A stretch of 64,000 nt of DNA from Stenotrophomonas sp. ASS1. Its GTDB lineage: Bacteria > Pseudomonadota > Gammaproteobacteria > Xanthomonadales > Xanthomonadaceae. Location of the stretch: positions 1,818,001-1,882,000 of the forward strand of contig NZ_CP031167.1 in NCBI RefSeq assembly GCF_004346925.1, read 5' to 3'. Below, in pieces: positions 8,133-50,369 of the stretch; position 1 is the stretch's first letter; each line of letters begins with the position of its first letter. Below the pieces are notes generated by a model. That model had not been told where the DNA came from. It was given only the letters and a program-made list of their open reading frames with translations, and ran no database searches. Made by a program: the position numbers and the translations under genes.

Positions 8133-8215
8133 GGGTGGGTTTCGGCAGGGCTGCGCCCTGCACCCGCAGAGGCCAGATCAAAAGCCAAGGCAAGAGCTGG
8201 CTTCCGTGGTTTGGC

Positions 8216-8311
8216 GGGGTGGTGTCGGAGTGCGGGGACGCCGCAAGTACGTCCCTGTAGGCTTGGCAGCCGCATCCATGCGGCTGACACCCCGCACTCC
8301 GACACCGCCCC
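8216..8311 (-). repeat. Dispersed three-stem element, copy 1
   Basis: The outer arms GGTGTCGGAGTGCGGGG (8221-8237) and its exact complement (8290-8306) are extended by GGGG/CCCC after one mismatch. Read on the minus strand, the inside holds the hairpin GCCGCAT-GG-ATGCGGC and the block TACAGGGACGTACTTGCGGC followed by GTCCC, which closes a second hairpin (GGGACG with CGTCCC). The same core recurs at 8.5, 13.2 and 38.0 kb. Confidence 0.75.
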
Positions 8312-8338
8312 ACCTCTGACAGATTCCGGCGGCTGTTG

Positions 8339-8453
8339 GTAGGTGTCGACCTTGGTCGACACGGTAGATCCACGCCATGCGTGGATGCTCTTCGTTCAAT
8401 TCTCGAAACATTCGATTTCGATAGAGATCCATCCACGCATGGCGTGGATCTAC
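8339..8453. repeat. Cluster of three SMAG palindromes
   Basis: Units are GTAGGTGTCGACC/GGTCGACAC (8339-8362), GTAGATCCACGC-CAT-GCGTGGAT (8364-8386), and the reverse-oriented ATCCACGC-ATG-GCGTGGATCTAC (8431-8453). The last two form a head-to-head pair. Confidence 0.85.
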
Positions 8454-8466
8454 AGAAAGCAATGCC

Positions 8467-8672
8467 CGACAGATCGCAGAAATCTGTCGAAGGCGGGGTG
8501 GGTCCGGTTACGGGGGCGTGAGCCGCATGGGCCCGAGGCATGCCTCGGGCGGGTTGGGGAGGACGCCCAACCCCGGTCTTGCCATGTGCGCAGGACAGCG
8601 CACACGAGCAAGCGGCGACCGAGCTTACAGGGACGTACTTGCGGCGTCCCCGCACTCCGACACCGCCCCGCC
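8467..8672 (+). repeat. Dispersed three-stem element, copy 2 (chimeric)
   Basis: The left half (hairpin CGACAGAT/ATCTGTCG, then GGGTCCGGTTACGGGGGCG) matches copy 3. The right half (GAGC-TTACAGGGACGTACTTGC then CCCCGCACTCCGACACC) matches copy 1, so the outer arms are not complementary. In place of the usual first hairpin there are three others: the 20-base palindrome at 8531-8550, GGGTTGGG/CCCAACCC (8551-8573) and TGTGCGC/GCGCACA (8585-8604). This suggests recombination between two elements. Confidence 0.7.
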
Positions 8673-13205: not shown

Positions 13206-13332
13206 CGACAGATCGCAGAAATCTGTCGAAGGCGGGATGGGTCCGGTTGCGGGGGCGTGAGCCGCATGGATGCGGCGACCGAGCTTACATGGACGTACTT
13301 GCAGCGTCCCCCGCAACCGGACCCACCCCGCC
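13206..13332 (+). repeat. Dispersed three-stem element, copy 3 (most complete)
   Basis: A leading hairpin CGACAGAT/ATCTGTCG (13206-13228) precedes the outer stem: GGCGGG (13231-13236) with CCCGCC (13327-13332), then GGGTCCGGTTGCGGGGG (13239-13255) with its exact complement at 13308-13324. Inside are GCCGCAT-GG-ATGCGGC (13261-13276) and GGACG (13291-13295) with CGTCC (13305-13309), around the conserved TACTTGC loop. This gives an outer stem plus two hairpins, a three-way-junction shape. Confidence 0.78.
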
Positions 13333-13370
13333 ATCCCACAGGAAACCAGCTTTTGACGTTGCTGTTGAGG

Positions 13371-13426
13371 TTGCCGGCCAGCGGCCGGCACTACCGCGGG
13401 TGCCGGGTGCAACCCGGCCGACGCCC
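13371..13426. repeat. SMAG palindrome and adjacent GC hairpin before uup
   Basis: TTGCCGGCC-AGC-GGCCGGCACTACC (13371-13395) is a reverse-oriented SMAG unit. It is followed by GGGTGCCGGGTGCAACCCGGC, ending at 13426, whose relatives also close the flanks of the element copies near 8.15 and 8.73 kb. Confidence 0.75.
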
Positions 13427-37681: not shown

Positions 37682-37785
37682 GAGGGGGCGGATGGCCCTC
37701 TCCAAAACACGCCAAAGCCCTTCCATGGTGCTCGATGGCGCCATCCATGGCGCCAACGGTTTTGGAGAGGGCCATCCGCCCCCTC
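37682..37785. repeat. Inverted repeat with perfect 27-base arms
   Basis: The arm at 37682-37708 begins GAGGGGGCGGATGGCCCTCT and ends CCAAAAC; its exact complement is at 37759-37785. Between them is a smaller palindrome GGCGCCAT-CC-ATGGCGCC (37737-37754). An 11-base direct repeat TCCGTGCGGCG flanks the structure (37652-37662 and 37795-37805), a possible target duplication. It carries no coding capacity. Confidence 0.82.
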
Positions 37786-37917: not shown

Positions 37918-37976
37918 AAGACTTTGATCCTGCCTTTGCTCACCCCTCCGCCGCGCGGAATGTTGGCTGGCACGGG

Positions 37977-38067
37977 CGGGTGAGGCTGGCCGGGACTGTC
38001 AGCGGCATGGATGCCGCTGCCAAGCCTACAGGGATGTACTTGCGGCGTGTCCCGGGCAGTCTCACCC
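37977..38067 (+). repeat. Dispersed three-stem element, copy 4 (covarying outer stem)
   Basis: The outer arm GGGTGAGGCTGGCCGGGAC (37978-37996) pairs with 38049-38067 at 18 of 19 positions (one G-T, one mismatch), although it shares almost no sequence with the arms of copies 1 and 3. Hairpin 1 is GCGGCAT-GG-ATGCCGC, a compensated C-G to G-C change relative to the other copies. The core TACAGGGATGTACTTGCGGC is conserved. Confidence 0.75.
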
Positions 38068-38117
38068 ACCCGGGGCCCCACAGCAAACCGAAACGTCCGC
38101 CGGCAACGCTTTGAACC

Positions 38118-49586: not shown

Positions 49587-50369
49587 TCAGGGCGGACTGC
49601 TGCGACGAGCGCGGCAATGCGGCAATGCGCATGGGATGCCTCGGCCGCGCCGCGATGTTGAAGCCGGTTGCACCTGGCTTGTGGCGGGGATCGATTCCGG
49701 CAGCTGCACCTGCCCGGTGATGCTTGCCCATACCAGGGTCGTACCCAGTGCACCTGCCAGGTACGCCACCGACACCGCCCCGATCAGCAGGCCCGCGGCA
49801 TGCTCCAGCCATGGAAGCAATCGGCAACACCCCTGTGCCCTGCGCGGATGGCTGCCGAGCCACGCCATCAGCAGGCCGAGCGACAGCGCGACGCCACTCA
49901 GGCAGGCCACGTAAGCGGCCTGGGTGCCCGTGTCGGCAACGAGGCCTGTAACCAGGGCTGCAATCGCGAACTGCAGCATCCAGTTGCTGCTGCTGGCGAG
50001 CGCCAGCAGGCATCCTGCTTCGGCGTGCGGCCAACGGGAGCGGGCGCGCAGGCCCGAGGGCATCTGCAGGGAAAGCGGAGAGAACGGGGTCAAGCCGGCG
50101 TCGCGCAGGCACATGCCCGCCAGGCGCAGCAGCAGGAGGCAGCCCGCGCACTGCATCGCCAGCGTCCACAGGCCGCGGTTTCCCAGCATGCCCGCTGCAA
50201 CGAAAGCCGTCGCACAGATGACGCCCGTACCGAAGGCGATACCGAACGACGCGGCCATGGCGGCGTGCCCGCCCGCGCCCATCGCGGTGCGCAGGATCTT
50301 CGCGTGATGCGAAGCAGGCAGGAGCATGGCGAAGCCGTACAGCACCGCGACGATGAAGAACTGCTGCAC
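49587..50369 (-). CDS. Divergent LysE/RhtB-type translocator lacking the PGPD motif
   Basis: 260 residues with about six membrane helices. The layout and spacing match LysE/RhtB exporters, but the N-terminal PGPD signature is replaced: FAMLLPASHHAKILRTAMG instead of LSPGPDFFLVART as in the next gene. It is about 50 residues longer than typical (200-210); the final part (QVQPASTSRRGRGIPCALPH) is low-complexity and probably added by loss of the original stop. It is leftward, 94 bases downstream of the intact LysE-type gene. Export function is doubtful; it may be a decaying paralogue. Confidence 0.65.
   Translation of the reverse strand: MQQFFIVAVLYGFAMLLPASHHAKILRTAMGAGGHAAMAASFGIAFGTGVICATAFVAAGMLGNRGLWTLAMQCAGCLLLLRLAGMCLRDAGLTPFSPLSLQMPSGLRARSRWPHAEAGCLLALASSSNWMLQFAIAALVTGLVADTGTQAAYVACLSGVALSLGLLMAWLGSHPRRAQGCCRLLPWLEHAAGLLIGAVSVAYLAGALGTTLVWASITGQVQLPESIPATSQVQPASTSRRGRGIPCALPHCRARRSSPP

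What the first reader, a model, noticed from the sequence alone, without database searches (positions are those of the whole stretch)
8216..8311. Dispersed three-stem element with covarying outer stem: candidate structured RNA family
Four intergenic copies (8216-8311 minus strand, 8467-8672, 13206-13332, 37977-38067) share a core (hairpin around CATGGATGC, then TACA-GGA-GTACTTGC) but differ almost completely in the outer arms. In copies 1, 3 and 4 the arms are GGTGTCGGAGTGCGGGG, GGGTCCGGTTGCGGGGG and GGGTGAGGCTGGCCGGGAC, each paired with its own complement (17/17, 17/17, 18/19). Hairpin 1 also shows a compensated C-G to G-C swap in copy 4. Conserved loops with exchanged but maintained stems are the signature of selection on a folded RNA or DNA structure. 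I cannot match it to a named family. It could be a small RNA, an mRNA-end stabiliser or a mobile hairpin element.
Basis: partly seen in the sequence, partly recalled or inferred. Interest (0 to 1): 0.78.

Follow-up and report, generated by a model that had tools for sequence, protein, structure and literature searches.

The report
Dispersed repeat presenting two CsrA-docking loops
A roughly 100-base repeat, present in at least 80 copies in this bacterium and found across many gamma-proteobacteria, keeps a three-stem fold whose two loops match the known docking site of the global regulator CsrA, so its RNA would likely bind CsrA and may soak it up.

Summary
Alignments of 43 and 38 copies give a three-way junction: variable outer stem P1, hairpin P2, an almost invariant A, and hairpin P3 with a conserved 3' bulge. 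In 24 of 29 pairs both sides have changed. Both hairpins end in an ANGGAN hexaloop on a C-G pair and mainly the N positions vary, as in the published high-affinity CsrA/RsmA site. Imperfect P1 pairs are far more often G-U than A-C (77 to 5), so the GGA-loop strand appears to be the one under selection. The element occurs in 66 of 369 sampled genomes of the class; 63 of 64 good-quality positives tested encode CsrA. It is not unnamed: Yersinia YPAL/RU-2 and Rfam TwoAYGGAY (RF01731) belong to the same family, and TwoAYGGAY was already predicted to bind CsrA. New here: the unification, the genome-wide dispersal in Stenotrophomonas relatives, the refined junction and the strand test. Likely mechanism: transcribed copies bind CsrA dimers and titrate them. 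Sense transcription was not shown, and gene-orientation data do not favour a cis mRNA role.

The parts
8213..8314 (-). Copy 1: full element, core 8225-8302; P2 hexaloop 8274-8279, P3 hexaloop 8251-8256 (minus strand)
   Evidence: R2 87.8 bits; arms paired
8491..8672 (+). Copy 2: chimeric copy (left and right arms of two different types) with an insert (8531-8612) in the P2 loop; P3 with its ANGGA loop intact; forms a head-to-head inverted pair with copy 1
   Evidence: R2 8504-8659, 36.2 bits; arms mostly unpaired
13228..13335 (+). Copy 3: full element, core 13243-13320; P2 hexaloop 13266-13271, P3 hexaloop 13289-13294
   Evidence: R2 90.6 bits; at the orthologous site 7 of 30 loci examined are filled and 6 keep the repeat flanks without it
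37682..37785 (-).
   Evidence: R2 64.9 bits; sequence; arms paired
37973..38072 (+). Copy 4: full element, core 37984-38061; P2 hexaloop 38007-38012, P3 hexaloop 38030-38035
   Evidence: R2 89.0 bits; alleles in related strains

Best explanation
It is a dispersed, repeatedly amplified element of the TwoAYGGAY/YPAL type whose sense strand is predicted to fold into a three-way junction with two ANGGAN hexaloops, and its transcripts would likely bind the regulator CsrA/RsmA, perhaps one dimer per element, and so may act as scattered decoys that titrate it. Shown here: the covariation that defines the fold, the loop pattern, the strand asymmetry, the copy number, the spread over Gammaproteobacteria and the homology to TwoAYGGAY and YPAL. 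Inferred: CsrA binding (from the match to published recognition rules), bridging of both loops by one dimer (20 nt separate the two GGA motifs), and titration. Not shown: that the sense strand is transcribed, and how copies spread.
For: (1) Loop chemistry. Among distinct 78-nt copies, both loops read A-N-G-G-A in 30 of 30 on loci brought in by the class search (L103-L132; best-scoring matches per genome, so somewhat favoured), 66 of 68 in the own genome, 20 of 23 in other family genomes, 35 of 38 in pattern-chosen loci and 23 of 27 in genus alleles. Both closing pairs are C-G in 30 of 30 of the first set. Loop positions 2 and 6 vary (P2 position 2: T 36, G 30, A 5; P3 position 2: G 36, T 23, A 6, C 6). 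Structural work on RsmE defines the high-affinity site as an ANGGAX hexaloop directly on a stem, closed by C-G in the complexes shown, with N and X looped out (PMC4005645, passages).

(2) Stems covary around the fixed loops: 24 of 29 pairs change on both sides, covariation score 0.645 against 0.160 shuffled and at most 0.108 slid. At the site of copy 3 arm and core types differ between strains while ANGGA stays in both loops in 7 of 7 filled alleles. At the site of copy 5, T-A is replaced by G-C at one pair and by C-G at the next.

(3) Strand. P1 inner pairs: G-U 77, A-C 5, other mismatches 70, over six slightly overlapping sets; 36, 0 and 31 in the 71-copy set. Outer arms outside the model, other genomes: G-U 53, A-C 6, other 23. 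Neutral decay of a palindrome should give G-U and A-C equally.

(4) csrA: one intact gene in this genome; 70 of 75 other element-positive genomes and 63 of 64 good-quality ones have it.

(5) Family: RF01731 matches coincide with R2 matches at 6 of 6 loci compared, and TwoAYGGAY was predicted to bind CsrA (PMC4333381, passages).

(6) Arrays: six tandem copies in G601, 6 of 6 with ANGGA in both loops.
Against: No transcript was seen. Co-directional neighbours would read the element in sense 35 times and antisense 38 times (pooled), and in 88 of 135 placed copies the gene at the element's 3' side points at it, so its read-through would be antisense. No sigma-70-like promoter enrichment upstream: mean 5.81 against 6.08 in mononucleotide shuffles, 168 flanks. 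The one Rfam RNA record I found for the Yersinia repeat, Ysr224, is its antisense strand. The strand asymmetry is not uniform: own-genome outer arms, offsets 1-9, G-U 10 and A-C 9, and P2 plus P3 over all sets G-U 20 and A-C 10. The csrA association is weak because csrA is common: good-quality class genomes 55 of 56 against 225 of 258, p 0.015; all genomes 61 of 66 against 252 of 303, p 0.06. Five of 75 positives show no csrA, one (G253) 98% complete. Distribution is patchy (11 of 60 family genomes), which suits a mobile element better than an essential sponge. The conserved P3 bulge, junction A and junction G are not explained by CsrA.
Confidence: 0.6

Rival explanations
1. It is a non-autonomous mobile repeat whose folded sense strand, as single-stranded DNA or RNA, is the substrate of an unknown mobility enzyme; the loops are contacts for that enzyme and resemble CsrA sites by coincidence or as a side use.
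For: Patchy presence with high copy number (76, 77, 58 and 49 matches in four genomes, none in 49 of 60; capped candidates). Near-identical arm classes within a genome. Sites with and without the element between strains. YPAL is described as recently mobile, with target duplications of 3-26 bp at or next to dyad symmetry (PMC2229807, passages). Selection at the moment of copying would also give the strand asymmetry and would not need sense transcription at every locus.
Against: No enzyme is known to me and none was searched for here. The constraint pattern (A, GGA and C-G fixed; positions 2 and 6 free) is the CsrA rule and would have to arise twice. Tandem arrays and the two Yersinia sequences read keep both loops.
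Confidence: 0.22
2. It is an mRNA 3'-end stabiliser or attenuator: the long P1 stem at gene ends blocks exonucleases or polymerase, in either orientation, and the loops are incidental.
For: Copies sit at gene 3' ends and are rare between divergent genes (6 of 75 against an assumed 25%, p 0.0003). PMC2229807 (passage) says YPAL elements are read together with upstream genes (its word is co-translated) and might influence transcript stability. Antisense Ysr224 is recorded.
Against: A plain stabiliser needs neither two near-invariant ANGGA loops nor a junction, and would not be expected to show strand asymmetry.
Confidence: 0.1
3. The perfect arms are kept by DNA-level processes (template switching at quasi-palindromes, gene conversion between copies) without selection on a folded RNA.
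For: Arm and core types are exchanged wholesale at orthologous sites, so many apparent compensations are copied rather than independent. Own-genome outer arms show no strand asymmetry at offsets 1-9 (10 to 9).
Against: Such correction is symmetric, yet G-U exceeds A-C 77 to 5 in inner P1 and 53 to 6 in outer arms of other genomes. It does not explain covariation across the P3 bulge or the fixed unpaired loops.
Confidence: 0.06

Closest known systems
TwoAYGGAY RNA (Rfam RF01731)
   Same: Outer stem enclosing two hairpins with AYGGAY-type loops; tandem G-A in one stem (PMC4333381, passage), seen here in 44 of 75 own-genome copies; RF01731 matches fall on copies of this element at 6 of 6 loci compared; predicted CsrA ligand.
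   Different: The Rfam model (168 positions) misses most copies: none in the window at threshold, and in G000 6 matches at E<=1 with 1 over threshold against 76 with R1. The dispersed, multicopy, inverted-pair organisation and the P3 bulge are not in the passages I read.
YPAL / RU-2 repeat of Yersinia
   Same: The 168-bp repeat printed in PMC2759123 Table 1b and the Y. similis copy contain P1, P2 and P3 with both ANGGA loops (R2 58.7 bits for the latter). Intergenic, tens of copies per genome (43 in Y. pestis, 144 in Y. enterocolitica; PMC2847712, passage), described as mobile.
   Different: Described as a MITE-like DNA repeat; the passages I read do not mention CsrA, and no held paper contains both words YPAL and CsrA. 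Arms and flanks differ.
RsmX/RsmY/RsmZ and CsrB/CsrC sponge RNAs
   Same: ANGGAX hexaloops on C-G-closed stems that sequester CsrA/RsmE (PMC4005645, passages).
   Different: Those are sRNAs with several sites each; here two sites per element and many elements per genome. No Rfam match to them in the window or in four own loci up to E 5.
SMAG / GTAG-tagged REP elements of Stenotrophomonas
   Same: Dispersed intergenic palindromes in the same genome, seen by eye beside many copies.
   Different: Short GTAG-tagged palindromes (PMC3733652, passages; the SMAG label is recalled); no junction and no paired ANGGA loops.

Membership tests
TwoAYGGAY (RF01731) | Scores over the Rfam gathering threshold (43 bits) | tested here: not met
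   Window copies: no match. One G000 copy of the same repeat passes with 44.1 bits and scores 95.6 bits with R2; 5 of 20 element-positive genomes have a passing copy. So the repeat family overlaps RF01731, but the window copies fall below its cut-off.
TwoAYGGAY (RF01731) | Two hairpins with AYGGAY-like loops inside an outer stem | tested here: met
   the second loop base is N rather than Y (G is frequent).
TwoAYGGAY (RF01731) | Homology at the same places | tested here: met
   R2 and RF01731 hit the same stretch at 6 of 6 loci (lowest R2 score 32 bits, L328).
YPAL / RU-2 | Contains the internal inverted repeats and core of the 168-bp Yersinia repeat | tested here: inconclusive
   The core is shared; the terminal parts of YPAL outside P1 were not compared with Stenotrophomonas.
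YPAL / RU-2 | Insertion with target-site duplication of variable length | tested here: inconclusive
   Filled and empty alleles exist at one site, but empty alleles keep part of the right arm sequence, so insertion and deletion cannot be told apart.
CsrA/RsmA-sequestering RNAs | ANGGAX hexaloop on a stem closed by C-G | tested here: met
   closing C-G 30 of 30 in both hairpins of the CM-chosen diverse set; own genome 66 of 68 (P2) and 68 of 68 (P3). Exceptions exist: Saccharophagus P2 stems of A-U pairs.
CsrA/RsmA-sequestering RNAs | Demonstrated binding of CsrA and relief of repression | not testable with these tools
   Needs binding and reporter assays.
MITE with fixed terminal inverted repeats | Constant terminal inverted repeats shared by copies | tested here: not met
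   Arms differ between classes and genomes and pair with their own partner.

The most novel reading that the evidence does not exclude
A selfish, lineage-amplified repeat that travels by carrying a docking site for the host's global RNA regulator: a genome-scale distributed CsrA sponge, re-expanded independently in many gamma-proteobacterial lineages, whose folded sense RNA is needed for its own propagation, a bacterial analogue of a SINE.
Probability: 0.25. Interest if true: 0.86.

Novelty: new variant of a known kind. Interest (0 to 1): 0.64.

Why it matters
It joins three separately described or unnamed things (dispersed Stenotrophomonas hairpins, the Yersinia YPAL repeat, the orphan Rfam family TwoAYGGAY) into one family with one testable function. 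If CsrA binds it, this genome would carry about 160 potential high-affinity CsrA sites outside the usual mRNA leaders and sponge genes. It would also be a case in which a mobile repeat reshapes a global post-transcriptional network.

Tried and rejected
Minimum-energy folding of single copies gives a P3 helix that does not covary; it was replaced by the alignment-based structure. Literal sequence words in papers gave unrelated papers, except PMC2759123, which holds the Yersinia repeat. Own-promoter hypothesis: no enrichment. Cis mRNA orientation preference: none. Plasmid and phage records: no similar place with one 110-base query; two viral contigs match the P3 pattern. Weak Rfam matches to microRNAs and others I take as chance matches to long hairpins. 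PMC9788540 (passages) concerns two single-locus CsrA sRNAs, not repeats; in PMC12889724 the word intergenic does not occur. De Gregorio 2006, the primary YPAL paper, is not held and is cited through PMC2229807.

Rows dropped: A1 leaves out 5 insert-bearing copies and one duplicate. A3 uses 38 of the 58 matches (length 78, less redundant). One search uses 71 distinct copies of length 78 out of 145 rows. One search was given 100 of the loci fetched by then. Own-genome context uses 75 of 76 hits, those listed; other genomes 60 of 104, the other 44 falling inside a crude ORF call. Most of L133-L212 were found with a pattern that fixes P3 letters, so their P3 is not independent evidence; P1 and P2 are. 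The outer-arm count stops at two successive mismatches, which slightly favours G-U over A-C. Searches of more than 40 genomes with an RNA model scored 12, 15 or 79 candidates per genome, so copy numbers and positive genomes are lower bounds. That searches drew the same 369 genomes is taken from their matching handles.

Full report
WHAT IS THERE. The window lies at 1818001-1882000 of a 4.56 Mb single-contig genome. A covariance model finds the cores at 8225-8302 (-), 13243-13320 (+), 37984-38061 (+) and, interrupted by an insert, 8504-8659 (+). It also finds a fifth copy at 37696-37771 (-). Copies 1/2 and 5/4 form head-to-head inverted pairs. A first model scored 76 matches in the genome, 75 of them listed (79 candidates scored). 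Eight further places are not among the listed 75 (checked): 726618, 1815802, window 37696 and window 8504, and four insert-bearing copies. That makes 83 places, so at least 80 copies.

STRUCTURE. Alignment A1 (43 own-genome copies) and A3 (38 copies from ten genomes of the family) agree on one fold. P1 is the outer stem, 13 pairs modelled and up to about 10 more outside. P2 has 10 pairs, with a U.Y mismatch and tandem G-A in many Stenotrophomonas copies that become Watson-Crick pairs elsewhere. Then come an A (70 of 71 copies) and P3: three pairs, three more pairs, a hexaloop and a 3' five-base bulge YUYRC. On A3, 94.9% of 1044 pair cells are standard, 24 of 29 pairs change on both sides, and the covariation score is 0.645 against 0.160 shuffled and at most 0.108 slid. 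RNAalifold found the two lowest P2 pairs on its own. Shuffles do not correct for relatedness, and copies within a genome exchange sequence, so these counts are not independent events. R-scape was not available.

THE LOOPS. Both hairpins carry A-N-G-G-A-N on a C-G pair. In the 30 distinct 78-nt copies on loci L103-L132 this holds in 30 of 30 for both loops and both closing pairs; these loci are the best-scoring matches of their genomes, which favours intact loops. Less favoured sets: own genome 66 of 68, other family genomes 20 of 23, pattern-chosen loci 35 of 38, genus alleles 23 of 27 with ANGGA in both loops. Positions 2 and 6 vary between bases. PMC4005645 (passages) describes this as the high-affinity CsrA/RsmE site: an ANGGAX hexaloop directly on a stem, C-G closing pair, N and X looped out and variable. 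In the AT-rich Saccharophagus copies P2 has become a run of A-U pairs around a loop that is still AGGGA in three of four copies. The viral-contig copy L254 has a five-base AGGAC loop on a C-G pair, the N-less form that PMC4005645 reports for RsmZ stem-loops 3 and 4. The two GGA motifs are 20 bases apart. That one CsrA dimer likes such spacing is recalled, not tested.

WHICH STRAND. If a palindrome decays neutrally, mutations should give as many A-C as G-U mispairs. In inner P1 the diverse 71-copy set has 36 G-U, 0 A-C and 31 other mismatches. Over six slightly overlapping sets the counts are 77, 5 and 70 (binomial p about 1e-17 for 77 to 5, an overstatement because copies are related). Outer arms in 91 copies of other genomes (one own-genome locus, L103, among them), which the model does not cover, give 53, 6 and 23. 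Against this, own-genome outer arms at offsets 1-9 give 10 to 9, and P2 plus P3 together 20 to 10. On balance the strand carrying the GGA loops is the one whose fold is selected, as RNA or as single-stranded DNA.

SAME SITE, DIFFERENT COPIES. Of 30 loci fetched for the site of copy 3, 7 (own genome included) have the element in several arm and core types with ANGGA in both loops, 6 keep the repeat flanks without it, 11 have other intergenic sequence and 6 could not be placed between both anchors (no R2 match in those 6 lacking it). At the sites of copies 4 and 5, related strains swap P2 and P3 types and show paired changes in P1 (T-A to G-C at one pair, T-A to C-G at the next). Over the three sites together, 23 of 27 distinct 78-nt alleles keep ANGGA in both loops. 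Copying between repeats is likely, so DNA-level conversion contributes to arm exchange.

SPREAD. 11 of 60 sampled family genomes and 66 of 369 sampled genomes of the class are positive. In a phylum-wide sample of 299, 18 are positive and all 18 are in the same class; the listing does not show how many of the 299 lie outside it. Named hosts by a P3 pattern include Xanthomonas, Stenotrophomonas, Halopseudomonas, Alcanivorax, Marinobacter, Microbulbifer, Rheinheimera, Methylomonas, Ectothiorhodospira and Yersinia similis. csrA is present once in this genome, intact, in 70 of 75 other positives and in 63 of 64 good-quality ones. In the class sample, good-quality positives have csrA in 55 of 56 and negatives in 225 of 258 (derived; p 0.015; all genomes 61 of 66 against 252 of 303, p 0.06). 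This is consistent with dependence on CsrA but weak.

CONTEXT. Of 75 own-genome copies, 29 lie between convergent genes, 40 in co-directional gaps (23 sense, 17 antisense) and 6 between divergent genes. With a cruder caller, 60 copies in other loci give 21, 33 (12 sense, 21 antisense) and 6. Copies thus sit at gene ends with no preference for sense reading. In 88 of the 135 the gene on the element's 3' side ends towards it and would read its antisense. No promoter enrichment was found upstream. These results argue against a simple cis mRNA role and leave open how sense RNA is made. In Yersinia the Rfam RNA Ysr224 (RF02770) is the antisense strand of the repeat (126.5 bits).

KNOWN RELATIVES. 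Rfam has no gathering match for the element in the window, and four own loci do not match TwoAYGGAY up to E 5. But searching RF01731 through 20 element-positive genomes gave matches at E<=1 in 11 and over threshold in 5. The six loci it returned all carry R2 matches at the same place. PMC4333381 (passages) predicted TwoAYGGAY to bind CsrA from its loops and mentions tandem G-A in one stem. PMC2759123 Table 1b prints the 168-bp Yersinia RU-2/YPAL repeat, which contains the element. PMC2229807 (passages) calls it recently mobile, with 3-26 bp target duplications at or next to dyad symmetry. No paper held contains both words YPAL and CsrA, and none of the five papers listed contains TwoAYGGAY together with YPAL. 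The library lacks most subscription papers and supplements were not searched, so a prior link elsewhere cannot be excluded.

JUDGEMENT. The element is a divergent, dispersed branch of the TwoAYGGAY/YPAL family. CsrA binding of its sense RNA is likely (about 0.75, my estimate). Titration of CsrA is the mechanism I commit to (0.6). The main rival is that the fold serves mobility. Arrays such as the six tandem copies in G601 would be strong sponges if transcribed.

Noticed in passing
window 8531-8612 and loci L004, L012, L025, L034, L036, L041, L042: Eight own-genome places carry the same insert in the P2 hexaloop just after ATGG; in three of them (L004, L034, L036) a different sequence also follows ATGG of the P3 loop. 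The insert contains two hairpins with AGGA in the loop in most copies.
   Followed up: partly
L259 (G601:C1:94431-95645) and L145:3121-3736: Tandem arrays of the element on one strand: six copies with about 227-bp period in G601 and four with about 180-bp period in a Saccharophagus MAG.
   Followed up: partly
L195:7888-7994 (-): Rfam Yersinia sRNA Ysr224 (RF02770) is the antisense strand of the YPAL repeat, 126.5 bits.
   Followed up: yes
3' flank of many own-genome copies, e.g. window 13350-13375: Short TTGCTG/TTGACG/TTGCCG hexamer runs of variable length follow the element, then a GC hairpin before the neighbouring gene; another class has a T-rich run upstream instead (read by eye).
   Followed up: no
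class with CCGTGG left flanks, e.g. G000:C1:3300748, 444900, 63422: A further outer inverted repeat (CCGTGG... with ...CCACGAGG) varies in its inner bases on both sides, suggesting an additional stem outside P1 (read by eye).
   Followed up: no
window 50186-50285 (-): Marginal Rfam match to PYLIS_2 (36.6 bits, gathering score 36), probably a chance match.
   Followed up: no
window 8355-8450: GTAG-tagged REP-like palindromes (SMAG type, label recalled) lie between the two inverted copies 1 and 2.
   Followed up: no
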